A DNA stretch of 64,000 nt from Nibribacter ruber (GTDB taxonomy: Bacteria; Bacteroidota; Bacteroidia; Cytophagales; Hymenobacteraceae): positions 496,001 to 560,000 of the forward strand of contig NZ_CP047897.1 of assembly GCF_009913235.1 (NCBI RefSeq), in the 5' to 3' direction. The notes beneath the pieces are model-generated. The model ran no database searches. It was given only the letters and a program-made list of their open reading frames with translations, and was not told the origin of the DNA. Below are positions 1,348 through 64,000 of this stretch, in pieces (the stretch's first letter is position 1; every line of letters begins with the position of its first letter). The translations under genes and the position numbers were made by a program.

Positions 1348-1385
1348 CGTTTTTTGGCAGTTTCCTGGAAAAGAGGCCAAAAACG
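1348..1385. repeat. 38-bp palindromic repeat, copy R1
   Basis: Copy of the window's 38-bp imperfect palindrome (CGTTTTTT arm, CTGG centre, AAAAACG end) between the AI-2E permease and the DUF2383 gene. Confidence 0.85.
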
Positions 1386-1391
1386 AAGCCA

Positions 1392-2489
1392 TTACGCTTT
1401 TCGCTGCCGTCTTAGTTTTTTAATCAGTTTCAGTTCACGCGGCTCGCGATGAATGTCACCTAGCAAGAAGGCAATGGGTTTAAGTGGAGTGTACTGATCC
1501 AGCAGAACCTTCAGGATGGCAATGAGCGGGATGGAAAGGATCATGCCGGCTGCTCCCCAGACTTCGCCACCCACAATCAAGGCAATGATGGCCGCAAACG
1601 GATTAATGCTCACCTTTGAACCTACAATGTTGGGCGTTATGAAATTGCCTTCCAGAAATTGCACAAACGCAAAAATAGCCACTACAATGAGCATGGTGGT
1701 CACAGAGCCCGTGTTTACCAGCACGTACAAGGCGGGCAGCGCCGCTCCCAGCATGATGCCAATGTAGGGAATGACCGTGAGCACAGAGGCAAAGGCCCCG
1801 AAGAAGATGGCATACTCAATGCCCATGATGAACAACCCAATGGAATTGAGAATGGCCACAATCACGATCACAATCACCAAGCCTGAAATGTAGCTCTGCA
1901 CCACCTGCTGTATGTTGTCAATGGTCACAATGATGGTATCACGCTTGGCCACCGGAATGAACTGAAACACAAATTGCCGCAAATGGTCACGGTAGTACAG
2001 CATGCAGAACACATAAATGGGAATCAGAGTCACTACGGTCAGGGCGCCGGTAGTAAGCGAGATTGTGCTGCCCAGGAAAGCGGTACCCGTCTGGCTTATG
2101 TTTCCCAAGGCCTTCTCCAGAAACTCAGAGCGGTTGGTGGGCTTTATGCCAAACTTGTCCTGCAAAAACATCTGGATCTTGGAGATAAGAATAGACAGCT
2201 TAGCGGATATGTCATTGAGTTCAGCGGAGAAACTGCCAATCTGGATGGAAAAGAAATACACCATAAGTGCCAGAACCAAAATAACCAGGACAAGGCTCAA
2301 GACAATGGCTACGGCCCGGGGCATGTGCCGCTCTAACCGCACGCTCATGGGGAGCAGCAGAAGCGCAAACAATCCAGCAAAGCTCAAAGGAATCAAGATG
2401 GACTTGAACGTCTGCATGAAATACAGCAGCAGAAAGAGCCCCAGCAAGATGACGGTGTATTTAAAGTAGGCGGGTAGTTTTATTTCCAT
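1392..2489 (-). CDS. AI-2E family (PerM/YdiK) membrane permease
   Basis: 365-residue polytopic membrane protein. Hydrophobic segments occur near residues 10-50 and 60-85, at about 150-175, and as a cluster from about 205 to 345. The soluble loop at about 90-150 and the conserved C-terminal block (VIPYIGIMLGAALPALYVL, then FLEGNFITPNIVGSKVSINP) are typical of the AI-2E transporter family. Members export or exchange varied small molecules; the name comes from E. coli TqsA, and the substrate here cannot be told from sequence. It ends with a basic tail (KKLRRQRKA). The 330-bp region upstream is shared with parE, which points the other way. Confidence 0.88.
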   Translation of the reverse strand: MEIKLPAYFKYTVILLGLFLLLYFMQTFKSILIPLSFAGLFALLLLPMSVRLERHMPRAVAIVLSLVLVILVLALMVYFFSIQIGSFSAELNDISAKLSILISKIQMFLQDKFGIKPTNRSEFLEKALGNISQTGTAFLGSTISLTTGALTVVTLIPIYVFCMLYYRDHLRQFVFQFIPVAKRDTIIVTIDNIQQVVQSYISGLVIVIVIVAILNSIGLFIMGIEYAIFFGAFASVLTVIPYIGIMLGAALPALYVLVNTGSVTTMLIVVAIFAFVQFLEGNFITPNIVGSKVSINPFAAIIALIVGGEVWGAAGMILSIPLIAILKVLLDQYTPLKPIAFLLGDIHREPRELKLIKKLRRQRKA

Positions 2490-2621
2490 GGACAGCAGCT
2501 AACGGGTAAGGTGTTAAGGTAGAGGTGTATACTCAAGAAAAGCTAAACAAATTAGCAATCTAATAGAAAGGGTTAGAATAGAAGCGTAAAATATGCTAAA
2601 AAAATAAGCAATGATTCTCTG

Positions 2622-2650
2622 TTTGAATGAACTGCAAAGCCCTATATTTG
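2622..2650 (+). promoter_or_regulatory. Putative promoter for parE-parC
   Basis: TTTG at 2622-2625 and TATATTTG at 2643-2650, spacer 17, match the Bacteroidota -33/-7 pattern. It implies a leader of roughly 160 nt before the ATG at 2820. The rest of the 2490-2819 intergenic region shows no gene or repeat to me. Confidence 0.6.
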
Positions 2651-2819
2651 GTTACAAAAGGGAGCCCTGCCAAGTGCTTTGGCAACCAATATTTCGTCTT
2701 AATTGGGCCCTGAATCCTGCAAGCAGCTGACGGAAAAATTGGTCTCCTTGTGCCAGGCATGGCAAAGTACACGCATTTTTTCATTTATTTTACCGAATTC
2801 TACTAAAACCAAGTGCCCC

Positions 2820-4691
2820 ATGGCAGAACAGATTAACGTAAATTACAACGAGGACAGCATTCGTTCCCTTGACTGGCGTGAACACATCCGGCTACGCCCG
2901 GGTATGTACATTGGTAAGCTGGGTGACGGTTCATCGCCTGACGACGGAATTTACATTCTTGTGAAAGAGGTGATTGACAACTCCATTGATGAGCACATGA
3001 TGGGGTTTGGCCGAACCATTGAGGTAAAAATCTCTGATCATAAAGTAATCGTGCGCGACTACGGCCGCGGTATTCCGTTGGGCAAGGTGATTGACTGCGT
3101 GAGTAAGATCAACACCGGGGGTAAGTATGACAGCCGCGCCTTCCAGAAGTCTGTGGGGTTGAACGGGGTGGGTACCAAGGCGGTAAATGCCCTATCCTCT
3201 CAGTTTAGAATCCAATCGGTGCGCGACGGCAAAACCAAAGTAGCGGAGTTTGAGCGCGGCGAACTGGTGAATGATGAGGCCTTGCAGGACACTAGTCAGC
3301 GCAACGGTACCACCACCACCTTTGTGCCAGATGACACCATCTTCAAAAACTACCATTTCATTCCGGAGTTCCTTGAAAACCAGATTTGGAACTACGTGTA
3401 CCTGAATGCGGGTCTTACCATCCATTTCAACGGACAGAAGTACTTGTCAGAAAATGGCTTGAAAGACCTGTTGGCCCGCAAGATAGATGAAGATAGCATG
3501 CGCTATCCTATCATTCACCTGAAAGGCGAGGACATAGAATTTGCTCTAACTCACGGAAATGACTACGGTGAGGAGTATTATTCTTTCGTGAACGGCCAAT
3601 ACACTACCCAGGGTGGTACGCACTTGGCCGCTTTCAGAGAAGCCGTGGTGAAGACGCTGCGTGAGTTCTACAAGAAGGATTATGACGCTACAGACATCAG
3701 AGGTTCCATTGTGGGCGCTATTGCCATACGCGTGCAGGAACCGGTGTTTGAAAGTCAGACTAAAACCAAACTAGGCTCAATTAACATTGCGCACGAGGGA
3801 CCTACCGTCCGCAACTTCGTGAATGACTATGTAAAAGAGCACTTGGACAACTACCTTCACAAGAACCCAGCGGTAGCCGAAGCGCTTAAGAAACGGATTG
3901 AGCAGAGTGAGCGGGAGCGCAAGGACATGGCAGGCATCAAGAAGCTAGCCAACCAGCGCGCCAAGAAAGCCAACCTGCATAACAAAAAACTGCGCGATTG
4001 CCGCTTCCACTTCGCGGAAAGCAAAGACCTGGAGAAGGAAGCCTTGACTACCTTGTTCATTACAGAGGGGGACTCAGCATCGGGTTCCATCACCAAGTCC
4101 AGAAACGTAGAGTTGGAGGCCGTGTTCAGCTTGCGTGGTAAGCCTCTGAACTGCTTTGGCCTCAAGAAGAAGGTAGTGTATGAAAATGAAGAATTCAACC
4201 TGCTGCAACACGCCCTTAACATTGAAGAAGGCTTAGAAGGTCTGCGCTACAACCGCGTGGTGGTGGCCACAGATGCTGACGTGGACGGTATGCACATTCG
4301 CTTGCTGCTCATGACTTTCTTCCTGCAATTCTTCCCTGACCTGGTGAAGAACGGTCACCTGTATATTCTGGAAACACCTCTGTTTAGGGTGCGCAATAAG
4401 AAAGAAACCATTTACTGCTACAATGAGCAGGAGAAGCAGAACGCCATGCGCAAGCTAGGCAAGAGTGCTGAAATCACCCGCTTTAAAGGACTAGGGGAGA
4501 TTTCTCCAGATGAGTTTGGCAAGTTCATCGGCGACAACATCAGGCTGGAGCCGGTGATCATGGGCAAGACGGAGCAGAACATCCAGAAAGTGCTTTCCTA
4601 TTACATGGGCAAGAACACCCCAGAGCGCCAGCAATTCATCATTGAGAATTTGAAGATTGAAAAAGATATAGTAGAAGAGGTTTATGCTTAA
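2820..4691 (+). CDS. parE: DNA topoisomerase IV subunit B
   Basis: ATPase subunit of type IIA topoisomerase, which works with ParC to decatenate and relax DNA. The GHKL ATPase motifs are seen ([31 protein letters not shown]), followed by a transducer domain and the TOPRIM motifs EGDSASGS and DADVDG. The protein is 623 residues, the usual ParE length. I chose the ATG at 2820 ([19 protein letters not shown]) over an in-frame TTG at 2703, because the extra 39 residues have no domain character. The last 8 bp overlap the parC start, so translation is probably coupled. Naming it ParE rather than GyrB rests on the adjacent ParC-type partner. Confidence 0.93.
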
Positions 4692-7431: not shown

Positions 7432-7490
7432 GAAATTTCAAAGAAAAGCTGTAGATTACCTCTTGTTGGACCCACGTTTACTTGAGGATC

Positions 7491-8276: not shown

Positions 8277-8296
8277 TCTTCCTAAACTTGAAACGG

Positions 8297-11080: not shown

Positions 11081-12151
11081 ATGCGCGGGTTTTACCAGCT
11101 TTCTTTGCTTTTCTTTCTATTCATAGGCCTAGGTTGTAGCCAGGAGAAGAGACAGGAGCGCATGTTTTCGCCTAAGAGGGTAAACAGTACCCCCGCCGTG
11201 CACATCAATGAAATTTCAAGAGCCATTGCGCAGGGCAATGAGCAGCCAGAATGGTATGTGAAACGCGCGCGCCTGTACCTGTCCATCGGTAAGGAAGGGC
11301 AGGCGTTACAGGATTTGAATACGGCCATCAAGGAAGACGCTTCTATAGGGGAGGCCTATTTTCTCAAGGCGAAGATTTTAGTGGCCCGGCAGCAGTACCA
11401 GGAATCCATGAAGCTGATGATGCAGGCCCGGGAGTTCAATTACTACACCCCGGAGTCTGAGGCCATACTGGCAGAGACCTACGTAGGTTTGCGCCAGTAT
11501 GAGCGGGCCCTGTCCCATAGCAGCAAGGCCGTGAAGCTGAGCCCCGGCGAACCCAAGTTCTACGTGTTGCTGGCCAAAGCGCAGGCGGGTACCGGAGACA
11601 CAATCCGAGCCGTTGCCAACCTGGGCAAGGCCTTAGAGCGCGATACCTTGTCATTGCCGGCCTTCAGAGAACTTTCAGCTATCTACATGGCGCAGAAACG
11701 ATTTGAGGAAGCCTATCCTATGGTGAATGTTGGCGTGAAAAAACAACCCAAAGATGCCTTCTGGTGGCGGCAACTAGGACAATACTTTATGGCCTACAAC
11801 CTCACTGACACGGCCATGGCCTCTTTTAACCACTCGGTGATGTTAGAGCCCAACCAGCCGGGCGTGTACCTTGGTTTAGCGCAGGCTTGGTTTAAAAAGA
11901 GACAATATGCCCTAGCCCTGGATCATCTGGTGAAAGCGCAGGAATTGGGAGCACCTCTTAATGAGGAGAACCGTTTTTTGCTGGCCAGATGCTATGAATA
12001 TACCGGGCAGCGGGAACTGGCGCGGGGACAATATGCTTTTTTAGTAAGAAAATACCCGCAAAACCCGCGTTATATGGTAGCTTTGCGCAAGATGCAGACG
12101 CCTGTTAAACGGCCAACCATGGATACCTTGAGCACGAATTCGGTTTTTTAA
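11081..12151 (+). CDS. TPR-repeat lipoprotein
   Basis: 356 residues from the ATG at 11081. The lipoprotein signal MRGFYQLSLLFFLFIGLGC has its lipobox Cys at about residue 19 (an in-frame TTG at 11069 would only lengthen it). Eight or more TPR-type helix pairs follow (for example AYFLKAKILVARQQYQESM and PGVYLGLAQAWFKKRQYALAL). It is probably an envelope-anchored scaffold with no catalytic motif. The last codons and TAA lie inside repeat R3. TPR assignment is firm; the partner is unknown. Confidence 0.82.
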   Translation: MRGFYQLSLLFFLFIGLGCSQEKRQERMFSPKRVNSTPAVHINEISRAIAQGNEQPEWYVKRARLYLSIGKEGQALQDLNTAIKEDASIGEAYFLKAKILVARQQYQESMKLMMQAREFNYYTPESEAILAETYVGLRQYERALSHSSKAVKLSPGEPKFYVLLAKAQAGTGDTIRAVANLGKALERDTLSLPAFRELSAIYMAQKRFEEAYPMVNVGVKKQPKDAFWWRQLGQYFMAYNLTDTAMASFNHSVMLEPNQPGVYLGLAQAWFKKRQYALALDHLVKAQELGAPLNEENRFLLARCYEYTGQRELARGQYAFLVRKYPQNPRYMVALRKMQTPVKRPTMDTLSTNSVF

Positions 12152-12179
12152 CTAATTTCCCGAAAACAAGCCAAAAACG
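12141..12179. repeat. Palindromic repeat copy R3, spanning a stop codon
   Basis: 39-nt diverged copy: the right arm (AAGCCAAAAACG) is intact, while the left arm (CGGTTTTTTAAC) encodes the last codons and stop of the TPR lipoprotein. Confidence 0.65.
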
Positions 12180-15490: not shown

Positions 15491-15528
15491 CGTTTTTGGG
15501 CTGTTTTCCAGAAAATAGCCCAAAAACG
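15491..15528. repeat. 38-bp palindromic repeat, copy R4
   Basis: Near-consensus copy (CGTTTTTGGGCTGTTTT, CCAG, AAAATAGCCCAAAAACG) between rplT and the POT transporter. Confidence 0.92.
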
Positions 15529-17795: not shown

Positions 17796-17846
17796 AAACG
17801 CATCGGCTCTGGTCTAATGGAAAGACCAGGGCCGATGCGTTTTTGG
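17796..17846 (+). terminator. Terminator of the Gre-factor gene, fused to repeat R5
   Basis: A 20-bp stem (17796-17815 with 17823-17842) with one G.U pair and a 7-nt loop. Its T-run is also the first arm of repeat R5. Confidence 0.9.
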
Positions 17847-17875
17847 GCTATTTTCTGGAAAACGGGCTAAAAACG
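17838..17875. repeat. 38-bp palindromic repeat, copy R5
   Basis: CGTTTTTGGGCTATTTT arm with CTGG centre; it overlaps the 3' side of the preceding terminator. Confidence 0.9.
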
Positions 17876-22742: not shown

Positions 22743-22791
22743 AACCCAACCATACGCGTTCTATACAAGAGAACCGGATGGTTGGGTTTTT
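22743..22791 (+). terminator. Terminator of pnp, fused to repeat R6
   Basis: An 11-bp stem AACCCAACCAT/ATGGTTGGGTT (22743-22753 with 22778-22788), with an inner GTTCT/AGAAC pairing; the T-run belongs to repeat R6. Confidence 0.88.
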
Positions 22792-22822
22792 GGGCTTCTT
22801 TCCAGAAAAGAGGCTAAAAACG
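22785..22822. repeat. 38-bp palindromic repeat, copy R6
   Basis: GGTTTTTGGGCTTCTTT arm, CCAG centre, AAAAGAGGCTAAAAACG end. It overlaps the pnp terminator tail. Confidence 0.88.
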
Positions 22823-23883: not shown

Positions 23884-23921
23884 CGTTTTTTGCCTATTTT
23901 CTGGAAAAGAGCCTAAAAACG
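23884..23921. repeat. 38-bp palindromic repeat, copy R7
   Basis: CGTTTTTTGCCTATTTT arm, CTGG centre, AAAAGAGCCTAAAAACG end, between rpoD and trxB. Confidence 0.9.
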
Positions 23922-26889: not shown

Positions 26890-26955
26890 AAAAGTCTCGG
26901 CCCCGTTTTTGGCCTGTTTTCCAGAGAACAGGCCAAAAACGGGGCCGAGGCTTTT
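26890..26955. terminator. Bidirectional terminator built on repeat R8
   Basis: Nearly perfect long palindrome: flanks AAAAGTCTCGG and CCGAGGCTTTT (one G.U) extend repeat R8 on both sides. It lies between converging bshB1 and accC. Confidence 0.9.
26904..26941. repeat. 38-bp palindromic repeat, copy R8
   Basis: CGTTTTTGGCCTGTTTT arm, CCAG centre, one mismatch in the right arm. It is the core of the bshB1/accC terminator. Confidence 0.95.
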
Positions 26956-31700: not shown

Positions 31701-31738
31701 CGTTTTTGGCCTGTTTTCTGGAAAATAGCACAAAAACA
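31701..31738. repeat. 38-bp palindromic repeat, copy R9
   Basis: CGTTTTTGGCCTGTTTT arm with CTGG centre; right arm decayed (AGCACAAAAACA). It lies between diverging tyrS and holA, so it cannot be a terminator there. Confidence 0.88.
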
Positions 31739-32882: not shown

Positions 32883-32920
32883 CGTTTTTGGCTTGTTTTC
32901 TGGAAAATAGACCAAAAACG
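32883..32920. repeat. 38-bp palindromic repeat, copy R10
   Basis: CGTTTTTGGCTTGTTTT arm, CTGG centre, AAAATAGACCAAAAACG end, 4 bp after the holA stop. Confidence 0.92.
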
Positions 32921-37804: not shown

Positions 37805-38983
37805 ATGATCCAAAGGCACATAAAATCTTTATTGTACAAGTATGACTGCGTGATTATCCCAGAGTTTGGGGGATTGATTACGCATTATGCTCCTGCAAAA
37901 ATCCATCCGGTAAAACACACGTTTTCACCGCCTTCTAAGCGCATTGCCTTCAATGAACAGTTGAAGGTGAATGACGGGCTGTTGATCACAACGTTGGCCC
38001 ACCAGCAGCGATGGCCGGTGGCCAAGGCGCAACAGGAGGTGAAAGAGTTTGTGCGTGCCTTAAAAGAACAACTGCAGGCCAACCATCAGTTTGAGCTGCG
38101 GGAGGTAGGCATGTTCCGGTACAATGCAGAAAGCAAGCTGGTATTTGAAAGCCTGGACAATGACAATTTCTTAGAGCACAGCTTTGGCCTGCCAGAACTG
38201 GTGTCTAAGCCTATCCTGGGAAGGGACACATTGGTGCTGCGTGGCAAATTCCAGGACCAGCCAGCCAAAGAAGTTGCCAGCCTGAGAACCGGCAGCCGGA
38301 TGCGCAGACTATTCAAAATAGGAGCAAGCCTGGTAGTGGGTGGTCTGGCCGTCTGCGGCGTGTACTTGTACTCATTGCAGCAAGACGTGGCCTTGAGTTC
38401 TCTTAATCCAATGGAATTACTTTCTTCTTCGCACGCGCCAGCCCAAGAGGCACCGGAAGTGGTGGAGAAAGCAGCTACTGCTCCTGAAAAATCTGCCGCC
38501 ATGGATGCGTATGAGCAGTCCTTGCTGGCCGCTCAGGCTCCAGAGGATACCGTGGCTTCCTCAGTAAATGAATCCACTGCTGCACAAGAAGAACTGGTTT
38601 GGGGCGATTCCCAGAAAAACAGCCAAAAAACGGAAGAAGTTAAAGAAGAGGCGGTTATCCAGCCTGAGGTAAAGAAAGAGGTGAAGAAGGAGGCCGTTGA
38701 AAAACTGGTTGAGCCTGTGAAAGCCTTGAGCTCTACCACAATTAAAGGCAAGACCAACCGTTTCTATGTCATCATGGGCGTTTTCTCTGAGAATGAGTTT
38801 GCTTCTATGAACCAGAAAAGCCTGCGTAAGAAAGGGTACCAGGCTAAAACCTTGCTTCCTTCCAAAGAAAGTAAATGGCACAGGGTTTCCGTTGCTGACT
38901 TTGCCACTGAAGAAGAAGCCCAAGCCGCCCTGCCAACCCTACGCAAAGACGTAAGCCAAGAACTTTGGGTACTAAACTACTAA
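37805..38983 (+). CDS. HU-CCDC81 and SPOR domain membrane protein
   Basis: 392 residues. The N-terminal HU-CCDC81 domain (1-130: MIQRHIKSLLYKYDCVIIPEF, FNEQLKVNDGLLI) is predicted cytoplasmic. One TM segment is at about 170-190, then a Glu/Lys/Ala-rich linker, then a C-terminal SPOR domain (318-392) that in other proteins binds denuded glycan strands at division sites. The topology joins a nucleoid-like fold inside to a peptidoglycan sensor outside. A copy of the 38-bp repeat lies in the linker. It is 1 bp from the exbB start. Confidence 0.85.
   Translation: MIQRHIKSLLYKYDCVIIPEFGGLITHYAPAKIHPVKHTFSPPSKRIAFNEQLKVNDGLLITTLAHQQRWPVAKAQQEVKEFVRALKEQLQANHQFELREVGMFRYNAESKLVFESLDNDNFLEHSFGLPELVSKPILGRDTLVLRGKFQDQPAKEVASLRTGSRMRRLFKIGASLVVGGLAVCGVYLYSLQQDVALSSLNPMELLSSSHAPAQEAPEVVEKAATAPEKSAAMDAYEQSLLAAQAPEDTVASSVNESTAAQEELVWGDSQKNSQKTEEVKEEAVIQPEVKKEVKKEAVEKLVEPVKALSSTTIKGKTNRFYVIMGVFSENEFASMNQKSLRKKGYQAKTLLPSKESKWHRVSVADFATEEEAQAALPTLRKDVSQELWVLNY
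38595..38632. repeat. Repeat copy R11 inside the SPOR-protein gene
   Basis: 25 of 38 positions match the consensus by hand count (right half CCAGAAAAAC...CCAAAAAACG best). It is read in frame as WGDSQKNSQKTE within the disordered linker. Confidence 0.55.
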
Positions 38984-40965: not shown

Positions 40966-42255
40966 GTGACCTACGAACAAGCCTTAGAGTATCTATACCA
41001 GCAGTTGCCGATGTTTCACCGCATCGGCAATTCTGCTTTTACAAAGAGCCTGGACAACATCCTAACCCTTACAAAAGCCTTAGGAAACCCTCAGCAAGAC
41101 TTTAGAACCGTGCATGTGGCAGGTACCAACGGCAAGGGAAGTTCCTCTAGCATGCTGGCAGCTATCCTACAATCGGCGGGCTATAAAACTGGTCTGTATA
41201 CTTCTCCGCACCTGAAAGACTTTACCGAGCGCATACGCATAAACGGCCAGATGATTTCTAAAGAGAAGGTTACGCAATTCACAGAGAAGCATCAGTCGCT
41301 CTTTGAGCAGGTGAAACCTTCCTTCTTTGAAATGACCGTGGCCCTTGCGTTTGAGCATTTTAAAGAAGAGCAGGTAGATATTGCCATCATTGAAGTGGGC
41401 CTGGGTGGACGTTTGGATTCTACCAACATCATAACACCGCTGGTTTCCCTGATCACCAATATTGGGTTGGACCACCAAAGCCTGCTGGGCAATACCCTGC
41501 AAGAAATTGCAACGGAAAAAGCCGGCATCATAAAACCTGGAGTTCCAGCCGTCATCAGCACTACTCAGGAGTCGGTTTTGGCCCAATTCCAGGAAAAGAG
41601 CCAAAAAACGGGCAGTCCTTTGTATTTCGCAGACCAGGAATATAGGGCAGAGCCGAAAGGGCAACAAGGTCATTTAGCATTATTTGACATTTACAAAGGC
41701 GAAACCCTCTATCTGGCAGACCTGGAACTTGCGCTGCTGGGTAAATACCAAAAACAGAACCTACCTGGCGTTCTCAAAACCATAGCACTGTTGCAGGCCC
41801 AAGGGTTTCAGATAACCGAAGAGCACGTGAAGGAAGGACTTAAGAACTTGCAGGCCCTTACTGGTTTAAAAGGCAGATGGCAGATTCTTAACGCGGAGCC
41901 TTTGACCATTTGTGACACCGGCCACAACATTGATGGCATCCGGCAAGTAGTGGAACAATTATTGGCGCTTCAAAAGCAGGTGCACTTTGTTTTCGGGGCG
42001 GTGAATGACAAAGACGTGACCAGTATATTAAGACTTTTGCCCTTGTCTTACCGGTATTATTTCTGTCAGGCCCAGATACCCAGAGCCTTGCCCGTGCAAC
42101 AACTATGGGAAGAGGCGCAGTTTGCCGGCCTGAAAGGTGCGGCCTATCCAACGGTAGAAGACGCCATACTGGCTGCCAAGGCACATGCGTTGCCAGATGA
42201 GGTAATATTCATTGGGGGTAGTACCTTTGTGGTGGCAGAAATAGCCGAACTATAA
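40966..42255 (+). CDS. folC: Folylpolyglutamate synthase/dihydrofolate synthase
   Basis: 429 residues, GTG start at 40966. Mur-ligase-like ATP-binding site VAGTNGKGSSSSMLAAIL, the family motif YTSPHLKDFTERIRING, and VGLGGRLDSTNI. The C-terminal ligase domain contains CDTGHNIDGI. It adds glutamate to (dihydro)folate or dihydropteroate. It follows the TonB-like gene by 17 bp and trmB by 3 bp. Repeat R12 lies in the coding sequence. Confidence 0.92.
   Translation: MTYEQALEYLYQQLPMFHRIGNSAFTKSLDNILTLTKALGNPQQDFRTVHVAGTNGKGSSSSMLAAILQSAGYKTGLYTSPHLKDFTERIRINGQMISKEKVTQFTEKHQSLFEQVKPSFFEMTVALAFEHFKEEQVDIAIIEVGLGGRLDSTNIITPLVSLITNIGLDHQSLLGNTLQEIATEKAGIIKPGVPAVISTTQESVLAQFQEKSQKTGSPLYFADQEYRAEPKGQQGHLALFDIYKGETLYLADLELALLGKYQKQNLPGVLKTIALLQAQGFQITEEHVKEGLKNLQALTGLKGRWQILNAEPLTICDTGHNIDGIRQVVEQLLALQKQVHFVFGAVNDKDVTSILRLLPLSYRYYFCQAQIPRALPVQQLWEEAQFAGLKGAAYPTVEDAILAAKAHALPDEVIFIGGSTFVVAEIAEL
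41573..41610. repeat. Repeat copy R12 inside folC
   Basis: 28 of 38 consensus positions by hand count; read in frame as VLAQFQEKSQKTG. FolC homologues have a similar stretch here, so it is not an obvious insertion. Confidence 0.65.
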
Positions 42256-42912: not shown

Positions 42913-42965
42913 TGTGCAAATGGTTTAATGTGCTGAGGTGCTAATTTCTTAATTTGAAGATGTGG
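42908..42965 (+). repeat. Left arm of a 57-bp inverted repeat
   Basis: TTTAATGTGCAAATGGTTTA through GATGTGG, starting inside the trmB stop codon. Its reverse complement recurs at 43151-43207 with one substitution and one 1-nt indel. Confidence 0.85.
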
Positions 42966-43024
42966 AGATTTGAAAATTGAGAAGGGGTATGTTCCTGAAA
43001 GATTCATACTAATTTTTCAATAGC

Positions 43025-43062
43025 CGTTTTTGGCCTCTTTTCACAGAAATAGCCTAAAAACA
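43025..43062. repeat. 38-bp palindromic repeat, copy R13
   Basis: CGTTTTTGGCCTCTTTT arm, CACAG centre, right arm AGCCTAAAAACA; between converging trmB and the TrpF-like gene. Confidence 0.88.
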
Positions 43063-43097: not shown

Positions 43098-43150
43098 TAA
43101 ATATCCATTTAAAGAATAGATCAGAAAGAAATCTTCACATCGTCACATTT

Positions 43151-43207
43151 CCACATCTTCAAATTAAGAAATAGCACCTCAGCACATTAAACCATTAGCA
43201 CATTAAA
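43151..43207 (-). repeat. Right arm of the 57-bp inverted repeat
   Basis: Reverse-complement partner of 42908-42965; its outer end abuts the stop codon (43208-43210) of the TrpF-like gene. Confidence 0.85.
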
Positions 43208-43829: not shown

Positions 43830-43866
43830 CGTTTTTATCGTGTTTTCCTGAAAATAAGTCTAAACT
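43830..43866. repeat. Degenerate palindromic repeat, copy R14
   Basis: CGTTTTTATCGTGTTTTCCTGAAAA part matches, right arm decayed (AGTCTAAACT). It lies directly upstream of the TrpF-like start. Confidence 0.6.
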
Positions 43867-44046
43867 AGGGTTGTTAAACCAAATGTAATTCATAATGCCG
43901 TTTTTACTACAGGGCCGGCAAAAATTGTGTCCCAATCGGGATAATAACGGAGTGAACCGGGAAACTAGTATTGCTTGTTGTCGTTGCGTTCAGGTTTATA
44001 CTCATTGGAGCCTGCGCTTAAAAACGAAAGTGGAAGGTATTTTAGT

Positions 44047-49269: not shown

Positions 49270-49311
49270 GTCGTTTTTGGCCTGTTTTCCAGGAAACAGG
49301 CCAAAAACGAC
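49270..49311. terminator. Bidirectional terminator formed by repeat R15
   Basis: GTCGTTTTTGGCCTGTTT arm pairs perfectly with the right arm around a short loop, between the converging receptor and DUF2911 genes. Confidence 0.82.
49272..49309. repeat. 38-bp palindromic repeat, copy R15
   Basis: Almost exact consensus copy (CGTTTTTGGCCTGTTTT, CCAG, GAAACAGGCCAAAAACG). Confidence 0.95.
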
Positions 49312-51477: not shown

Positions 51478-52761
51478 ATGAGAACCTATCTATATCCTAA
51501 GAAGGAAAAATGGCCAGTTTTAACCCAACGGCCCGTGCAGAAGCTGGACCAGTTGCGGGAGGGAGTACAGCAGACCTTTGACCTGGTACAACAGCGCGGC
51601 GATGCAGCTTTAATGGAATTGGCCACAAAGTTTGACAAAGCCACCCTGCAGAGTGTTTGGGTAAGCGATGAAGAAGTAGCGGCGGCCCTGCCTGAAGTAA
51701 GCGAGGAGTTGAAACAAGCCATTGAGGTAGCGTATGCCAACGTAAAGCGGTTTCATGAGGCGCAACGAGAGCCGGTACAACAGATAGAAACCATGCCAGG
51801 CGTCACGTGCTGGCGTAAATCAGTGGGCATCCAGAAAGTGGGCTTGTACATACCGGGAGGTTCAGCGCCCTTATTCTCTACGTTGCTCATGTTAGGAATT
51901 CCTGCCCAACTGGCCGGCTGCCGCGAAATCATTTTGGCCACTCCTCCCGGCACTAACGGTTCCATCAACGCCACCATTCTCTACACCGCCCACCGGCTAG
52001 GGATCAAACGCATCTTGAAAGCGGGAGGCGCGCAAGCCATTGCGGCAATGGCCTTCGGGACGGAGACGGTGCCAGCGGTAGATAAGATTTTTGGACCAGG
52101 CAATCAGTACGTAACCGCCGCCAAGCAGATGGTCACGCAAATGGGCGTCGCCATAGACATGCCGGCTGGCCCGTCAGAAGTCCTGGTGATTGCTGATGAC
52201 TCCGCGGAGGCAGACTTTGTGGCCGCCGACTTACTTTCGCAGGCAGAACACGGCCCCGACTCCCAAGTCGTTTTTGTCACGAATTCAGAAAAACAGCTCA
52301 AAAACGTCCAGGCTGCGGTGGCAGAACAAGTAGCCAAATTGCCTCGCCAGACGGTAGCAGAACAGGCCTTGACCAACAGCATTGGAGTAGTGGTGAGGTC
52401 ATTGGAAGAGGCGTTGGCTTTCTCTAATCTCTACGCACCAGAGCACTTGATTCTCTCCGTTGAGGAACCCGAAACGCTAGCCGAACAAGTCACACAGGCG
52501 GGTTCAGTCTTCATGGGGCACTTTAGCCCAGAATCTGTAGGAGACTATGCTTCAGGCACTAATCATACTTTGCCTACCAACGGCTACGCCCGCAACTACA
52601 GCGGTGTTTCCCTGGACAGCTTCATGAAGAAAATCACCTTCCAACAAGTAACCCGCGAAGGATTGGAGCGCATCGGACCCGCCGTAGAAATCATGGCTGA
52701 AGCCGAAGGGTTGCACGCACATAAGCATGCCGTGACGATTAGGCTAACTAAAGGGATTTGA
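51478..52761 (+). CDS. hisD: Histidinol dehydrogenase
   Basis: 427 residues, 1 bp after hisG. Last two steps of the pathway (histidinol to histidine). Family signatures GLYIPGGSAPLFSTLLMLGIPAQLAG and IFGPGNQYVTAAK, zinc-site LLSQAEHGPDSQVV and the C-terminal EGLHAHKHAV. Repeat R16 lies within the coding sequence at 52269-52306. Confidence 0.96.
   Translation: MRTYLYPKKEKWPVLTQRPVQKLDQLREGVQQTFDLVQQRGDAALMELATKFDKATLQSVWVSDEEVAAALPEVSEELKQAIEVAYANVKRFHEAQREPVQQIETMPGVTCWRKSVGIQKVGLYIPGGSAPLFSTLLMLGIPAQLAGCREIILATPPGTNGSINATILYTAHRLGIKRILKAGGAQAIAAMAFGTETVPAVDKIFGPGNQYVTAAKQMVTQMGVAIDMPAGPSEVLVIADDSAEADFVAADLLSQAEHGPDSQVVFVTNSEKQLKNVQAAVAEQVAKLPRQTVAEQALTNSIGVVVRSLEEALAFSNLYAPEHLILSVEEPETLAEQVTQAGSVFMGHFSPESVGDYASGTNHTLPTNGYARNYSGVSLDSFMKKITFQQVTREGLERIGPAVEIMAEAEGLHAHKHAVTIRLTKGI
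52269..52306. repeat. Repeat copy R16 inside hisD
   Basis: 28 of 38 consensus positions by hand count (CGTTTTTG and AAAACAG..CAAAAACG ends intact). Read as VFVTNSEKQLKN in a frame different from R12. Confidence 0.6.
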
Positions 52762-52902
52762 AAATTTGAAAATGTGGAGATGTGAAATTGATTTCTGTCT
52801 CACTTCCACACTTCAAATGATATTGATGAAAAGAAATAAAGGAAAATATGCAAAGGGAGAATACCATCTTCCCATCTGCACATTTCCAAATCTCCAAATT
52901 TG
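52755..52902. repeat. Imperfect inverted repeat between hisD and hisC
   Basis: GATTTGAAAATTTGAAAATG-type sequence after hisD is mirrored by CATTTCCAAATCTCCAAATT before hisC (about 24 of 30 positions). It fills the 145-bp gap; no promoter is evident inside. Confidence 0.6.
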
Positions 52903-52906
52903 AAAC

Positions 52907-53971
52907 ATGTTTACCATAGATAATTTCATCCGTCCGCACTTGAAGTCACTGAAACCGTATTCTTCGGCGCGTGATGAATTTGAGGGCGAAGCCAGCGTCT
53001 TTCTGGACGCCAACGAAAACAACCTGGGTAGCCTGGCCGGCGGAGTAGACTACAACCGCTACCCAGATCCCTACCAGAAAACCATCAAGGAAAAACTGGC
53101 CAAGCTGAAAGGTGTCAAGCCAGAGCAGATTTTCATAGGCAACGGTTCTGACGAGGCCATTGATTTGCTGGTGCGTCTGGTGTGTGAACCGGGCCAGGAC
53201 GAGGTGTTGTTGTTGCCCCCCACGTACGGCATGTATGAGGTGAGCGCCAACATCCACAACGTGGGCATTCAGCGAGTGCCGCTAGATGAGCGTTTTCAGC
53301 CTGTTTTCCAGAAAATAGCCGAAAAACAAACCGAGCGCACCAAAATCCTTTTCCTGTGCTCACCCAATAACCCCACCGGTAATGTCCTGGAGCACGCCAC
53401 GGTTGAAAATCTCATTCAGACCTTCAATGGCTTGGTGGTGGTAGATGAAGCCTATATTGATTTCACGGATCAGCCCAGCTGGAGCACGCGCCTGGACGAA
53501 TTTCCTAACTTGGTTGTCCTGCAGACACTTTCCAAAGCCTGGGGAATGGCGGGCCTGCGGCTGGGAATGGCTTTCGCTTCTCCAGAAATCATTGGCTACC
53601 TGAACAAGATAAAGCCGCCTTACAATATCAACGTAGTCACGCAGGGGTTGGTAAGTGATGCGTTGGATAAGACCGCGCAACTGCAAGATATGCTTCAAGT
53701 TATCATGGATGAACGGACCCGACTGTTACAAGCGTTTGAAGCTTTGCCCTTGATGGAGAAGGTTTATCCGTCAGATGCCAACTTCGTGCTGGTGCAGGTG
53801 CCCAATGCCAATGAACTGTATAGCTTTCTGCTGGAACGCGGCGTGGTAGTCCGGAACCGTTCCAACCAACCGGGTTGCGCCAACTGCCTGCGCATAACCG
53901 TGGGAACCCCCGCAGAAAACGATAACCTGCTGGAGGCGTTGCATTCAATTGCCGCCACGCAGAAAGTTTAG
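52907..53971 (+). CDS. hisC: Histidinol-phosphate aminotransferase
   Basis: 354 residues, class I/II PLP aminotransferase. LDANENNLGS, YPDPYQKTIKEKLAKLKG, FLCSPNNPTGN, VVDEAYIDF and the PLP lysine in LQTLSKAWGMAGLRLG. It converts imidazole-acetol phosphate to histidinol phosphate. It is separated from hisD by repeats and from hisB by R18 and R19. Repeat R17 is in the coding sequence. Confidence 0.95.
   Translation: MFTIDNFIRPHLKSLKPYSSARDEFEGEASVFLDANENNLGSLAGGVDYNRYPDPYQKTIKEKLAKLKGVKPEQIFIGNGSDEAIDLLVRLVCEPGQDEVLLLPPTYGMYEVSANIHNVGIQRVPLDERFQPVFQKIAEKQTERTKILFLCSPNNPTGNVLEHATVENLIQTFNGLVVVDEAYIDFTDQPSWSTRLDEFPNLVVLQTLSKAWGMAGLRLGMAFASPEIIGYLNKIKPPYNINVVTQGLVSDALDKTAQLQDMLQVIMDERTRLLQAFEALPLMEKVYPSDANFVLVQVPNANELYSFLLERGVVVRNRSNQPGCANCLRITVGTPAENDNLLEALHSIAATQKV
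53291..53328. repeat. Repeat copy R17 inside hisC
   Basis: 32 of 38 consensus positions by hand count, with the central 16 bases CCTGTTTTCCAGAAAA exact. Encodes RFQPVFQKIAEKQ in frame. Confidence 0.75.
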
Positions 53972-53975: not shown

Positions 53976-54013
53976 CGTTTTTGGTCTGTTTTCTGAGAAA
54001 CAGGCTAAAATGG
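53976..54013. repeat. 38-bp palindromic repeat, copy R18
   Basis: CGTTTTTGGTCTGTTTT arm, CTGAG centre, 4 bp after the hisC stop; end decayed (CTAAAATGG). Confidence 0.85.
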
Positions 54014-54109: not shown

Positions 54110-54147
54110 CGTTTTTAGGCTATTTTTCAGGAATTAGCCCGAAAACC
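54110..54147. repeat. 38-bp palindromic repeat, copy R19
   Basis: CGTTTTTAGGCTATTTTTCAG then GAATTAGCCCGAAAACC; second copy in the hisC-hisB gap, 130 bp after R18. A CTCTCGCTAGA string precedes it, as also before R15. Confidence 0.8.
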
Positions 54148-55918: not shown

Positions 55919-56638
55919 ATGGACATTATTCCGGCTATTGACTTGATTGGCGGCCAGTGCGTACGCCTTACAGAAGGAGATTTTTCCCAGCAGACTACCT
56001 ACCATTCTGACCCCGTAGAAGTGGCCAAACAGTTTGAGGGTCTCGGGCTGCGTCGCCTGCATTTGGTGGATTTGGACGGTGCCCGCGCCAAGAAGCCGGT
56101 GAATTTGCCGGTGCTGGAACGCATCGCCAGACAAACTAAATTGATCATTGACTACGGCGGGGGATTGCAAAGTTCAGAAGCCGTCCGGCAGGCGTTTGAC
56201 GCGGGTGCGCAGCAAATTACGGCAGGTAGCATTGCCGTCCGGGAGCCGCAGACGGTAGAAGCCTGGCTGCAGGAGTACGGTGCCGACCGCATCATTGTAG
56301 GAGCAGATTTCAAAGACAACCGCATTGCCATCAACGCCTGGGCCGAGCAGAGCGATTTAACGCTGGAGTCGTTTTTGGCCTCTTTTTCTGAAAAGGGCGC
56401 AAAAACGTTCATCTGCACCGATGTCAGCAAAGATGGCAAGCTGCAAGGTTCTTCCATAGAAGTGTATCAACGTTTGCTAGAGCGGTTCCCCACGTTGCAG
56501 TTCATTGCCAGCGGGGGCGTCACCACCATTGAAGAAGTTCGGCAATTGCATGAAGCGGGTTTGCACGGTGCCATTATTGGCAAAGCCATTTATGAGGGGA
56601 CCATCAAGTTGGAAGATTTAGCAAAGGAGGTTATTTAG
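55919..56638 (+). CDS. hisA: ProFAR isomerase
   Basis: 239-residue TIM barrel. [38 protein letters not shown] (catalytic Asp), [15 protein letters not shown] and [12 protein letters not shown]. Isomerises ProFAR to PRFAR. hisF begins 1 bp after. Repeat R20 lies inside the gene. Confidence 0.96.
56370..56407. repeat. Repeat copy R20 inside hisA
   Basis: 31 of 38 consensus positions by hand count (first 12 bases and last 8 exact). Encodes [13 protein letters not shown] in the same frame as R12 and R22. Confidence 0.75.
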
Positions 56639-56639
56639 C

Positions 56640-57477: not shown

Positions 57478-57482
57478 AAATT

Positions 57483-58133: not shown

Positions 58134-58149
58134 GGATTCCATTACCTTT

Positions 58150-58213
58150 AAAAGCCAAGGCCCGTTTTTAGGCTGTTTTACAGAAAACAGCCTAAAAACG
58201 GGCCTTGGCTTTT
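58150..58213. terminator. Perfect 30-bp-stem bidirectional terminator built on R21
   Basis: 64-nt perfect palindrome with a 4-nt loop (ACAG) between converging hisIE and the LytTR regulator; bounded by AAAA and TTTT. Confidence 0.95.
58163..58200. repeat. 38-bp palindromic repeat, copy R21
   Basis: CGTTTTTAGGCTGTTTT arm with exactly complementary right arm; core differs from the consensus at paired positions. Confidence 0.95.
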
Positions 58214-58222
58214 ATGCAATTA

Positions 58223-58951: not shown

Positions 58952-59192
58952 AAGGAGTCATTAGCGCATCTGCCAGAGCAGACGGTTGATCTTGTCCGGG
59001 ACAAGAGGGCTGTTATTTTCAGAAAGCAATATAACGCCAAAAGGTTTTAATGCCTTCGGGTAAATATAGCCATTGACGCTCAACGGCCGGCTCTTCATCC
59101 AAAGTTTTATACGCGAAACTTCCTAAAATTAGTTTACAACTCCCTGAATGAATCACGTATAAGAGGCACCAACCAACCCAAAATGAACGCTT

Positions 59193-59918: not shown

Positions 59919-59954
59919 TCTTATCTCACCAGAGAATAACCCCCATAAATATAC

Positions 59955-61439: not shown

Positions 61440-62667
61440 AAAGTTAGGTTTGTTTGCCGGCTTCGGCCTGGAAATGGAATACATGCTGGTAGACCGGGAG
61501 ACCCTTGAGATTCTGCCCATTGCAGATCAGGTGCTTCAAGCAGAAGCGGGTGAACTCACCTCAGACGTTGAGCGCGGAGACATGGCCTGGTCCAATGAAC
61601 TGGTGATGCACGTGCTGGAACTCAAAACCAATGGACCCACCACCACTTTGCACGGCCTGCACCAGAAGTTTCACCAACAGGTGACCAGAATCAATGAACT
61701 GCTGGCGCCCATGAACGGTATGCTGCTACCCACCGGCGCGCACCCATTCATGGACCCGTTTACAGAAACCAGGCTGTGGCCGCATGATTCCAGTGAGATT
61801 TATGAGGCATACAATAAGGTGTTCAACTGCCAAGGCCACGGCTGGGCCAACCTGCAAAGCACGCACCTAAACCTGCCTTTCTCTAATGATGAGGAGTTTG
61901 GCAGGTTACACGCCGCCATCCGGTTGATCTTGCCCTTGCTCCCAGGTATTTGCGCAGCCTCACCGGTTTTGGATGGCAAGGTGACGGGCTTTTTGGATAC
62001 CCGCCTGGAAGTGTACCGTAAAAACCAACAGAAGGTGCCGCAGATAGCAGGAGCCGTAGTCCCCGAAGCCGTTTTTACCCAGCAGCACTACCAGGAGCAA
62101 ATCTTTGAGCCCATGTTCCGGGCCATTGCGCCTTTTGATCCAGACGGCATATTACAGGAGGAGTTCCTCAATTCCAGAGGGGCCATTGCCAGGTTCAGCC
62201 GGGGAGCCATTGAAATTCGCGTCATTGACAACCAGGAATGCCCGCTCGCTGACGTGGCCCTGGTTTCCCTCATCGTGGAAGTGTTGAAAATGCTGGTTTC
62301 AGAGGAGCGTAGTTCATATGAGGAACAGCAGAAAATAGACACGGCTTCCCTGGCCTCAGTTTTCGTTCAAAGTCTGGAAAAAGGCCGAAAAACGGAGATT
62401 CTGGACACTTCTTATTTACAGGCGCTGGGCTTCTCAGAAAAGACAAAAACCGTGGCAGACGTGTGGCAGGCGCTTTGGGAAAAGGTGCAACAAAAAGGCG
62501 TGCTGGACGCTGAAATAAATACTGCCCTGGAACAGATTCTACAGCAGGGGTGCTTGGCAGAGCGTTTGTTACAAGCCCTGGGCTCAAGTCCCACTTTAGA
62601 AGAAATTAAAACCATTTACCGAAAACTTTCGAATTGCTTAAGTGAAAACAACTTGTTCCTTCCATGA
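61426..62667 (+). CDS. GCS2-family carboxylate-amine ligase
   Basis: 413 residues of the glutamate-cysteine ligase type 2 family (GS-like fold). FGLEMEYMLVDRETLEI with ATP/metal Glu residues, NELVMHVLELKTNGP, LPTGAHPF, LQSTHLNLPF and RGAIEIRVIDNQECP are seen. Relatives join glutamate or another carboxylate to an amine. Not E. coli-type GshA. Start inside the RimK gene, and ATGA overlap with the amidohydrolase, so expression is coupled. Weak repeat R22 lies in the gene. Confidence 0.85.
   Translation: MSPVKKLGLFAGFGLEMEYMLVDRETLEILPIADQVLQAEAGELTSDVERGDMAWSNELVMHVLELKTNGPTTTLHGLHQKFHQQVTRINELLAPMNGMLLPTGAHPFMDPFTETRLWPHDSSEIYEAYNKVFNCQGHGWANLQSTHLNLPFSNDEEFGRLHAAIRLILPLLPGICAASPVLDGKVTGFLDTRLEVYRKNQQKVPQIAGAVVPEAVFTQQHYQEQIFEPMFRAIAPFDPDGILQEEFLNSRGAIARFSRGAIEIRVIDNQECPLADVALVSLIVEVLKMLVSEERSSYEEQQKIDTASLASVFVQSLEKGRKTEILDTSYLQALGFSEKTKTVADVWQALWEKVQQKGVLDAEINTALEQILQQGCLAERLLQALGSSPTLEEIKTIYRKLSNCLSENNLFLP
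62357..62394. repeat. Possible repeat copy R22 inside the GCS2 gene
   Basis: Only 22 of 38 consensus positions by hand count, but with correct spacing and intact GGAAAA and AAAAACG. Same reading frame as R12 and R20 (VFVQSLEKGRKTE). Confidence 0.35.
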
Positions 62668-63371
62668 GTCTGGACAAACGAAAAGTACTGTTTACCTGTG
62701 AGCATGGCGGCAATGAAATTCCCCAGGAGTTCAATGCTGCCTTTGATGGCGCAGAAGGAGCCTTGACCTCGCACCGCGGCTATGACCTGGGCGCCTTGGA
62801 CTTGTTCCAGAAGTTTGCCAATGCACCGTATGCAGACAAGGCTTTTTACAGTACCACCAGCCGGCTTCTGGTAGAGTTGAATAGGTCAAGACACCATCCC
62901 AGGCTTTTCTCTGAGTTCACGCAGCCGCTGCAGGAAGAGGAGAAGCGCCAGATCATCACGCAGCATTATCTGCCTTATCGCCAGAAAGTAGAAGAACAGA
63001 TCCACGACTGGATTCAGGAGGGCTATCAAGTGCTGCACATTTCCGTGCATAGCTTCACGCCGGTGCTGGACGGCGAGAAACGCAAAGCCGACATTGGTCT
63101 GCTGTACAACCCCGGCCGGGAGCGCGAGCAGCTGTTTGCCTCTAAATGGCGCCAGGAAATCAGCCGGCTGGACGGAGACTACAAGATCAGGTACAATTAC
63201 CCGTACAAAGGCACGGCAGACGGTTTTGTCACGCTGCTCAGGAGAAAGCACACACCAGAAGAATACGCCGGCCTGGAGCTGGAGGTGAACCAAAAGTTTG
63301 CGCTGGGATCACCAGAAGACTGGCTGGTTCTGCAAAATGTGTTGGTAAGTTCCTGCGGCAAAGCGCTTTAA
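62664..63371 (+). CDS. N-formylglutamate amidohydrolase family protein
   Basis: 235 residues. Family motifs: FTCEHGGNEIP (His14), SHRGYDLGALDL (Asp41), LVELNRSRHHPRLFSEF, HISVHSFTPVLDG (His129) and RKADIGLLYNP. The fold is the HutG/formylglutamate deformylase type; here no hut genes are present, so it probably hydrolyses an amide product of the neighbouring ligases. ATGA overlap with GCS2. Last gene of the cluster. Confidence 0.85.
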   Translation: MSLDKRKVLFTCEHGGNEIPQEFNAAFDGAEGALTSHRGYDLGALDLFQKFANAPYADKAFYSTTSRLLVELNRSRHHPRLFSEFTQPLQEEEKRQIITQHYLPYRQKVEEQIHDWIQEGYQVLHISVHSFTPVLDGEKRKADIGLLYNPGREREQLFASKWRQEISRLDGDYKIRYNYPYKGTADGFVTLLRRKHTPEEYAGLELEVNQKFALGSPEDWLVLQNVLVSSCGKAL

Positions 63372-63455
63372 CCTTAGCCCGCCTTGTGGAGTATAACCCT
63401 CAGCCTGGCAGCAATGCCAGTATAAAACTACTGTTCTACCTAACTATGAAAAAAC

Positions 63456-63860
63456 ATGCTGAATTATCTTCTTGACCTACTCGTGAGCGCCGGGGTGCTG
63501 TTGCTCCTAGCTTACATTTTACCGCAAGTCACCATCAAGAGCTTTTGGACGGCCCTTTGGGTAGCCGTTCTGGTAGGAATTCTCAACATCTTGATTGGCT
63601 GGTTGCTATCTTTCGTGTTGAATTTGGTTACTTTCTTCCTGCTGGAGTTCATCGTGAAGGTGATTGTGTCTGCCATTGTCATTAAAATAGCCGACAAGCT
63701 GGTGCGCAACTTTGAAATCAAAGGCTTCTGGCCGGCGCTGGTGATTGCCGTGGCTCTTTCTGCCGCCAGTACCCTGGTACACCGCTCAGATGAAGACGAA
63801 ATGCGAAATGAAGAATACGGTTTTGTAATGCCTGTTGCGCAGCAGGAGTTCAAAGCATAA
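63456..63860 (+). CDS. Small holin-like (phage_holin_4_2) membrane protein
   Basis: 134 residues with four hydrophobic segments (about 3-25, 28-50, 52-80, 86-110) and an acidic C-terminal tail. Resembles the PF04020 family (YvlD-like), chromosomal proteins of unknown function despite the phage name. No phage genes are near. A GNRA-loop hairpin CTGGCA-GCAA-TGCCAG (63405-63420) lies in its leader. Ended by a strong terminator. Confidence 0.8.
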   Translation: MLNYLLDLLVSAGVLLLLAYILPQVTIKSFWTALWVAVLVGILNILIGWLLSFVLNLVTFFLLEFIVKVIVSAIVIKIADKLVRNFEIKGFWPALVIAVALSAASTLVHRSDEDEMRNEEYGFVMPVAQQEFKA

Positions 63861-63882
63861 CGCTTCATTATTTAAACATACA

Positions 63883-63917
63883 AAAGGCCGCCGCTAATCA
63901 TTAGCGGCGGCCTTTTG
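63883..63917 (+). terminator. Strong terminator after the holin-like gene
   Basis: 17-nt arms AAAAGGCCGCCGCTAAT and ATTAGCGGCGGCCTTTT, flanked by A and T, possibly working in both directions. Confidence 0.93.
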
Positions 63918-63991
63918 CTTTTAGTAATCCTGTAGTTCATCCCTTTCACTTCCTGGTTTATTTACCGTTGGCAGCAGGAGCGAGGGAAACT

Positions 63992-64000
63992 CGTTTTTGG
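63992..64000. repeat. Palindromic repeat copy R23, cut by window end
   Basis: CGTTTTTGG at the last nine bases looks like the left arm of another copy; the rest lies outside the window. Confidence 0.5.

What the first reader, a model, noticed from the sequence alone, without database searches (positions are those of the whole stretch)
1348..64000. A dispersed 38-bp palindromic repeat family, about one copy per 3 kb
Seen directly: about 16 intergenic copies of an imperfect palindrome with left arm CGTTTTTGGCCTGTTTT, a centre of CCAG or CTGG, and the complementary right arm, at almost constant length 38 (R1-R10, R13, R15, R18, R19, R21, plus diverged R3 and R14). They occur in codirectional, convergent and divergent gaps, so simple termination cannot explain all of them (R9 lies between diverging genes). 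No target-site duplication or transposase is visible. I know of no named family with this sequence; it could be a REP/BIME-like, nucleoid-associated or uptake-signal-like element.
Basis: partly seen in the sequence, partly recalled or inferred. Interest (0 to 1): 0.78.

Follow-up and report, generated by a model that had tools for sequence, protein, structure and literature searches.

The report
Genus-wide 38-bp palindromic signal sites
Bacteria of the genus Rufibacter carry a 38-letter mirror-symmetric DNA signal at many fixed places, mostly between genes and sometimes inside them, spelled in a different dialect in different species, which looks like the address label of an unknown DNA-recognising protein.

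Summary
The repeat is real and genome-wide. The window (genus Rufibacter) holds 21 copies. A 924-kb sample of its 4.35-Mb genome holds 365, none in the reversed control: about 1,700 per genome. All 16 Rufibacter genomes searched have it; of 184 other genomes of the family, 177 have no match and 7 have one or two.

It does not behave like a REP-type mobile repeat. Sites sit at orthologous positions in six other species (100 of 109 testable cells). At hisD, hisC and hisA the site region aligns without indel in 15 congeners. The two arms vary nearly independently, position 7 apart; solitary arms are rare. Fifteen species have similar density but differing consensus. G007 has many sites but no Y1 transposase at E 0.001.

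Best reading: double-stranded DNA recognition sites for an unidentified two-fold symmetric protein, evolving in concert. I favour a DUS/USS-like uptake or self-recognition signal (0.4); the main rival is a chromosome-architecture or insulator site (0.35). The protein was not found and no function was tested.

The parts
1348..1385 (.). 38-bp dyad site, codirectional gap
   Evidence: matrix 52.0 bits
10984..11021 (.). 38-bp dyad site, codirectional gap just after a stop codon
   Evidence: 52.2 bits; found in 6 of 6 species tested
12142..12179 (.). 38-bp dyad site, upstream of thrS, overlapping the end of the preceding ORF
   Evidence: 37.8 bits; 6 of 6 species
15491..15528 (.). 38-bp dyad site, codirectional gap
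   Evidence: 62.2 bits; 1 of 1 testable species
17838..17875 (.). 38-bp dyad site, codirectional gap
   Evidence: 56.8 bits; 1 of 1 testable species
22785..22822 (.). 38-bp dyad site, codirectional gap after pnp
   Evidence: 45.0 bits; 6 of 6 species
23884..23921 (.). 38-bp dyad site, codirectional gap
   Evidence: 55.7 bits; 6 of 6 species
26904..26941 (.). 38-bp dyad site, convergent gap, inside a longer terminator-like stem with T runs outside
   Evidence: 57.8 bits; fold -56.9 kcal/mol; 6 of 6 species
31701..31738 (.). 38-bp dyad site, divergent gap
   Evidence: 54.1 bits; fold no better than shuffles, 46 of 200; 6 of 6 species
32883..32920 (.). 38-bp dyad site, codirectional gap just after a stop codon
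   Evidence: 58.0 bits; 6 of 6 species
38595..38632 (.). weak 38-bp dyad site inside a gene (HU-CCDC81/SPOR protein)
   Evidence: 22.7 bits; gene; 6 of 6 species
41573..41610 (.). 38-bp dyad site inside a Mur-ligase-family gene
   Evidence: 41.0 bits; gene; 6 of 6 species
43025..43062 (.). 38-bp dyad site, convergent gap
   Evidence: 46.9 bits; 6 of 6 species
43830..43867 (.). weak 38-bp dyad site, divergent gap
   Evidence: 24.6 bits; 5 of 6 species
49272..49309 (.). 38-bp dyad site, convergent gap
   Evidence: 63.4 bits; 6 of 6 species
52269..52306 (.). weak 38-bp dyad site inside hisD
   Evidence: 28.8 bits; same codons in 15 congeners, no indel
53291..53328 (.). 38-bp dyad site inside hisC (class I/II aminotransferase)
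   Evidence: 49.3 bits; same codons in 15 congeners, no indel; lost as a site in G013
53976..54013 (.). 38-bp dyad site just after hisC
   Evidence: 43.5 bits; gap holds a site in 2 of 6 species
54110..54147 (.). second 38-bp dyad site in the same gap
   Evidence: 41.7 bits; gap holds a site in 2 of 6 species
56370..56407 (.). 38-bp dyad site inside hisA
   Evidence: 44.8 bits; same codons in 15 congeners, no indel
58163..58200 (.). 38-bp dyad site, convergent gap, inside a longer bidirectional terminator-like stem
   Evidence: 55.5 bits; fold -53.8 kcal/mol; 5 of 5 testable species

Best explanation
The 38-bp element is a double-stranded DNA recognition site for a two-fold symmetric protein. 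Each 17-bp arm has two T tracts about one helical turn apart around a GG-S-CTG core, the arms flank a 4-bp centre, and both arms are used together. Sites are held at fixed positions within the genus Rufibacter, mostly in permissive DNA close after stop codons, and in a few cases inside genes. They change in place by substitution, and the sites of a species share one dialect. Commitment: they work like DNA-uptake / self-recognition signals (DUS/USS). A receptor on the natural-transformation route would prefer DNA carrying the dyad, and recombination of such fragments would pull the sites of a species towards the receptor's current preference. Shown here: genome-wide occurrence, genus restriction within the family, positional conservation in one syntenic region, near-independence of arms, rarity of solitary arms, differing consensus between species, no indel in three in-gene cases. 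Inferred: the protein, its symmetry, uptake, and drive.
For: 365 sites in 924 kb, reversed control 0. 16 of 16 Rufibacter genomes against 0-2 matches in each of 184 other family genomes. 100 of 109 testable site-by-species cells hold a site, in-gene cells 30 of 30. No indel at hisD, hisC, hisA in 15 congeners; the HisA peptide at the site differs in five genomes of other genera. Arms independent at most positions in 192 and 367 copies and in 14 other species, so pairing is not what is kept. 686 strong arms in full sites against 22 solitary, 14 expected from the reversed control. Different consensus at similar density, 1.7-2.7 kb per site, in 15 species. About 48 bits per site (2 x 23.9) where about 11 would address 1,700 sites in 4.35 Mb (my arithmetic). 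An integrase-bearing stretch has 2 sites in 20 kb. Published DUS behave alike in being most frequent in permissive core-genome places yet highly conserved, spaced about 1.5 kb (PMC2397512, passages), and in dialects between species (PMC3630211, abstract). A Bacteroidota member is naturally competent with a machinery described as unique (PMC8459023, abstract); ComEC is present in all 13 Rufibacter genomes searched.
Against: No receptor was found and no competence data for Rufibacter were seen. ComEC is equally present outside the genus (6 of 6), so it discriminates nothing. PilT, usual in pilus-driven uptake, has no match over its cut-off in 13 Rufibacter genomes. An obligate dyad is unlike DUS, where a single copy suffices (PMC2397512, passage). 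Position 7 of the arms is symmetric more often than by chance in 15 of 15 species, unexplained. Sites are weak in some species, and in G009 individual sites are uncertain. Dialect tracking inside genes is shown for hisA in G013 only, and there modestly; hisC is lost and hisD weak. An architectural site explains the obligate dyad at least as well.
Confidence: 0.4

Rival explanations
1. Chromosome architecture: the sites bind a genus-specific dimeric nucleoid protein that bends or bridges DNA and insulates neighbouring transcription units every 2 kb or so.
For: Obligate dyad with independent arms; flexible CA or TG step at the centre in the window's genome (226 of 367); T tracts about 10.5 bp apart; occupancy 71 of 92 convergent, 185 of 357 codirectional, 32 of 104 divergent gaps; in-gene sites lie farther from intergenic sites than random coding positions (median 1707 against 930, p 0.01; the related interval test p 0.09 with 12 of 19 sites).
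Against: Re-spelling of all sites between sister species is hard for a protein with some two thousand working sites; information per site is far above need; no expansion of HU or ParB-type HTH; most of the even spacing follows from gene arrangement; the central CA/TG preference is not general (G005, G006).
Confidence: 0.35
2. REP/REPIN-type mobile repeat moved by a RAYT (Y1 tyrosine transposase).
For: Short palindrome in many copies near stop codons; three Y1_Tnp genes in the genome, one of them with a copy on both sides.
Against: G007 has 915 + 929 half-sites and no Y1_Tnp hit at E 0.001; orthologous positions; no insertion in three genes; arms not covarying; copies near a RAYT are expected at this density.
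Confidence: 0.04
3. Transcription terminators or other RNA hairpins.
For: Some copies fold strongly; 11 of 48 convergent, 9 of 107 codirectional and 1 of 18 divergent copies sit in longer stems, controls 0, 3 and 0.
Against: 5 or more T in the 8 bases after the site in only 18 of 208 codirectional copies; copies in divergent gaps and inside genes; no pairing constraint; the copy at 31701 folds no better than shuffles.
Confidence: 0.05
4. Preferred sites of a type II topoisomerase.
For: Two-fold symmetry about 4 bp with helically phased tracts resembles the E. coli gyrase motif, which is symmetric, has a 36-bp core and 10.75-bp period (PMC6379681, passages); occupancy is highest in convergent gaps.
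Against: The E. coli motif is long and degenerate and enrichment downstream of genes is not hard-wired there; a genus-specific sharp consensus with dialects is not expected of a conserved enzyme.
Confidence: 0.06

Closest known systems
DNA uptake sequences (DUS, Neisseriaceae) and uptake signal sequences (USS, Pasteurellaceae)
   Same: About one to several thousand copies, permissive places but conserved, dialects between species, inverted pairs used in terminators (PMC3630211 abstract; PMC2397512 passages).
   Different: Here 38 bp, both arms needed and solitary arms rare; no PilT over cut-off; uptake untested.
REP/REPIN elements with RAYT
   Same: Short palindromes near stop codons, many copies (PMC3733652, abstract and two sections).
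   Different: No hairpin covariation, positions orthologous, no insertion in genes checked, no RAYT hit in one site-rich species.
HIP1 of cyanobacteria
   Same: Highly iterated palindrome (start of abstract in a listing).
   Different: HIP1 is 8 bp and tied to orphan methyltransferases (same listing); here 38 bp.
DNA gyrase motif and BIME-2 (E. coli)
   Same: Symmetry about 4 bp, helical phasing.
   Different: The gyrase motif is 130 bp and degenerate.

Membership tests
DUS/USS | High genomic copy number, species dialects | tested here: met
DUS/USS | Sites changed in place by substitution, also inside genes | tested here: met
   hisD, hisC, hisA in 15 congeners without indel
DUS/USS | A single copy (not a pair) is the unit | tested here: not met
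   22 solitary strong arms against 686 in full sites, 14 expected by chance
DUS/USS | Type IV pilus route | tested here: not met
   PilT family: 0 of 13 Rufibacter genomes over the cut-off, one weak partial match; one marker only
DUS/USS | Enhances DNA uptake | not testable with these tools
   needs a transformation assay
REP/REPIN with RAYT | Hairpin kept by pairing | tested here: not met
   weak symmetry at position 7 only
REP/REPIN with RAYT | Cognate RAYT in genomes with the repeat | tested here: inconclusive
   15 of 16 Rufibacter have a Y1_Tnp hit, G007 has none; RAYTs can be lost elsewhere (PMC3733652)
REP/REPIN with RAYT | Terminal GTAG or CGTC tag | not tested
   no systematic test was made
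Intrinsic terminator | U run after the hairpin | tested here: not met
   18 of 208 codirectional copies
Nucleoid-protein binding site | Occupied in vivo by a DNA-organising protein | not testable with these tools
   no candidate found; HU and ParB not expanded
Rfam RNA family | Match over the gathering score | tested here: not met
   only a tRNA in the window

The most novel reading that the evidence does not exclude
A genus-wide, obligate-dyad recognition code of about 38 bp, with some two thousand sites per chromosome held in position within the genus, that the sites of a species re-spell together in a dialect, read by an unknown symmetric protein: either a non-pilus self-DNA uptake code in Bacteroidota or a sequence-addressed chromosome scaffold. 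I know of neither kind with such a site (recall), and the limited paper searches showed none.
Probability: 0.6. Interest if true: 0.88.

Novelty: new variant of a known kind. Interest (0 to 1): 0.76.

Why it matters
If it is an uptake code, it would be the first self-DNA recognition signal known to me in Bacteroidota, and one without the usual pilus marker, giving a test system for how such codes arise, shift dialect and isolate species. If it is an architectural code, it would be a bacterial chromosome whose scaffold is addressed by an explicit sequence. Either way, many positionally conserved sites with parallel dialects across 16 sequenced species make the question directly testable.

Tried and rejected
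REP/RAYT, intrinsic terminators and Rfam RNAs were tested and set aside as general explanations. An expanded ParB/Noc-like or HU protein as reader was looked for and not seen. The window's own consensus in genome contigs gave nothing, but the tool leaves out the window's genome and near ones. No exact match in viral contigs and no blastn match in plasmids or phages; the last two are weak tests for a 38-base query.

A first impression from the selected exact-match rows, that G002, G003 and G004 have strongly symmetric arms, did not hold on unselected sites. What remains is a weak symmetry at position 7, positive in 15 of 15 species; isolated excesses elsewhere (G015 position 4, G009 position 11, G012 position 6) and small deficits (own positions 11 and 13) are not consistent across species. 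G015 first seemed to lack the family because the search began from the window's dialect; other seeds recover it. In G009 two of nine seeds find more sites in the reversed control than in the sequence, so single sites there are uncertain. A hisC substitution in G013 that looked like dialect tracking is not one: the site scores 2.7 bits there. The covariance model R1 was not used further. The first window-only pair count already showed no covariation.

Limits: genes come from my own simple hexamer caller; the species matrices were trained on the sequences they then scored; G008 is not in the table; positional conservation was tested in one syntenic region and six species. Sites of at least 17 bits that look solitary (7, reversed control 1) include ones whose partner seems shifted or decayed by eye.

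Papers: PMC3733652 abstract, two sections and one passage; PMC3630211 and PMC8459023 abstract and outline; PMC2397512, PMC6379681 and PMC12306157 passages; PMC4390886 start of abstract in a listing. That I found no description of this repeat rests; one search is uninformative (its ten listed papers do not contain the genus name), and most subscription journals are not held.
Full report
Observation. The window's family is real: 21 copies of 38 bp. The window lies at 496001-560000 of a 4.35-Mb single-contig genome. In 924 kb of the genome (window plus 43 stretches) there are 365 sites of at least 16 bits and none in the reversed sequence, one per 2.5 kb, which scales to about 1,700 per genome. 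Counts per 20 kb (43 stretches) have mean 8.0 and variance 4.5, range 2-12.

Anatomy. Consensus CGTTTTTGGCCTGTTTTC, then TG or CA, then GAAAACAGGCCAAAAACG. Positions 4-6, 15 and 16 of the arm are nearly invariant; 8, 10, 11, 13 and 17 vary most. The base just outside is C or T in 86% of flanks. Arms pair about as often as when arms are shuffled between copies (192 copies; 367 copies), except a small excess at position 7. The central two bases are the exception of the other sort: they are TG or CA, which do not mirror each other. Within an arm the one strong dependence is between positions 2 and 3. Copies are not recent duplicates: in 36,672 comparisons (both orientations) 33 share 37 or 38 bases and the commonest value is 29. 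Neutral decay of perfect palindromes would also leave arms uncorrelated, but not the position-specific invariance, orthologous positions and dialects.

Solitary arms. Of arms of at least 13 bits, 686 lie in full sites and 22 do not; the reversed control gives 14. At 17 bits or more it is 7 against 1, several of them full sites with a shifted or decayed partner by eye.

Location. Of gaps of 50 bp or more, 71 of 92 convergent, 185 of 357 codirectional and 32 of 104 divergent ones hold a site; 19 of 365 sites lie inside predicted genes and 11 at stretch ends. In codirectional gaps 142 of 208 sites are nearer the upstream stop than the downstream start. When sites are shuffled among gaps of like type and length, most of the evenness is reproduced; fewer intervals over 5 kb remain than expected (22 against 30.6, p 0.018) and the other measures give p 0.05-0.08. 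In-gene sites lie farther from intergenic sites than random coding positions (p 0.01; a related measure p 0.09). One stretch with a serine recombinase gene, L260, has 2 sites in 20 kb.

Relatives. A dialect-wide pattern (up to 2 mismatches) matches 48-1572 times in each of 16 Rufibacter genomes; of 184 other genomes of the family 177 have no match and 7 have one or two. The half-site search agrees: outside the genus counts are at the level of the control (43 genomes). In 20 and 40 kb of two other genera nine seed motifs find 0-2 sites, as in the reversed control. Fifteen species have one site per 1.7-2.7 kb, arm information from 10.6 to 23.9 bits, and differing consensus: the window's species CGTTTTTGGCCTGTTTT, G013 CGTTTTCGGGCTCATTT, G005 CGTTTAGGGGCTGTTTT, G006 CGTTTTAGGCCTGTTTT. 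On a tree of four proteins the sister pairs G001/G005 (support 0.995) and G006/G013 (0.961) have different dialects.

Position and in-place change. Over the syntenic window in six species, 100 of 109 testable site-by-species cells hold a site; 17 of 126 cells were not testable. The misses are one at 43830 and eight at 53976/54110, one gap counted twice. Over orthologous gaps, summed over the species: 66 both, 5 own only, 23 other only, 184 neither. The other species hold 23-39 sites there against 21 (reversed control 0-2). At hisD, hisC and hisA the site region aligns without indel in 15 congeners. The HisA peptide at the site, [14 protein letters not shown] in the window's species, differs in five genomes of other genera. 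In G013 the hisA site scores 46.3 bits with that species' matrix and 29.1 with the window's; the window's own hisA site scores 44.0 and 44.7; in G013 hisC is lost (2.7) and hisD weak (10.2).

What it is not, as far as tested. RAYT: G007 has 915 + 929 half-sites and no Y1_Tnp match at E 0.001, while the other 15 Rufibacter have one to six. Of the three Y1_Tnp genes of the window's genome, L003 has a copy on both sides and L001 and L002 have copies downstream, which at this density is no evidence of a link. Terminators: few T runs follow the sites, and copies lie in divergent gaps and genes; still 11 of 48 convergent copies are embedded in longer stems, so some terminators are built around the site. 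Known RNA: none.

How it most likely works. The data point to recognition of double-stranded DNA by a symmetric reader that needs both arms. Re-spelling of many sites in place, far more information per site than addressing needs, and placement in permissive DNA are what uptake signals show (PMC3630211 abstract; PMC2397512 passages). The obligate dyad, the missing PilT marker (13 genomes) and the lack of any competence data weigh against it; a competent Bacteroidota member with an unusual machinery is known (PMC8459023, abstract). An architectural site fits the symmetry and the placement between transcription units but explains dialects less well. I put 0.4 on the first and 0.35 on the second.

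Limits. The reader protein was not identified; HU and ParB-type proteins are not expanded. Nothing here measures binding, uptake or expression. Gene calls are approximate, and the positional test covers one region.

Noticed in passing
window 26904-26941 and 58163-58200: Two convergent-gap copies sit at the tip of much longer perfect stems with T runs outside on both strands, so the signal has been built into bidirectional terminators.
   Followed up: partly
L260 (own genome 2700001-2720000), 12461-14068: Serine recombinase and an XRE-type HTH protein in a stretch with only 2 sites in 20 kb: probably an integrated island that lacks the signal.
   Followed up: partly
L003, 1325-2111: A RAYT-like Y1_Tnp gene (1402-1953) with a copy of the repeat on each side, the upstream one with an extended stem.
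   Followed up: partly
G005 (R. immobilis), many places: Many listed copies are near-identical around GTTTAGGGGCTGTTTTT, more homogeneous to the eye than in the window's species.
   Followed up: no
position 7 of each arm, 15 species: The one position with a consistent arm-to-arm symmetry, positive in 15 of 15 species; cause unknown, perhaps palindrome correction or a mixture of sub-dialects.
   Followed up: partly
window 42944-42975, 43131-43173, 52756-52787 and 52858-52908: A second, A/T-rich small repeat with an 8-base rhythm (ACATCTTC-like), in opposite orientations at two places (families D6 and D13).
   Followed up: no
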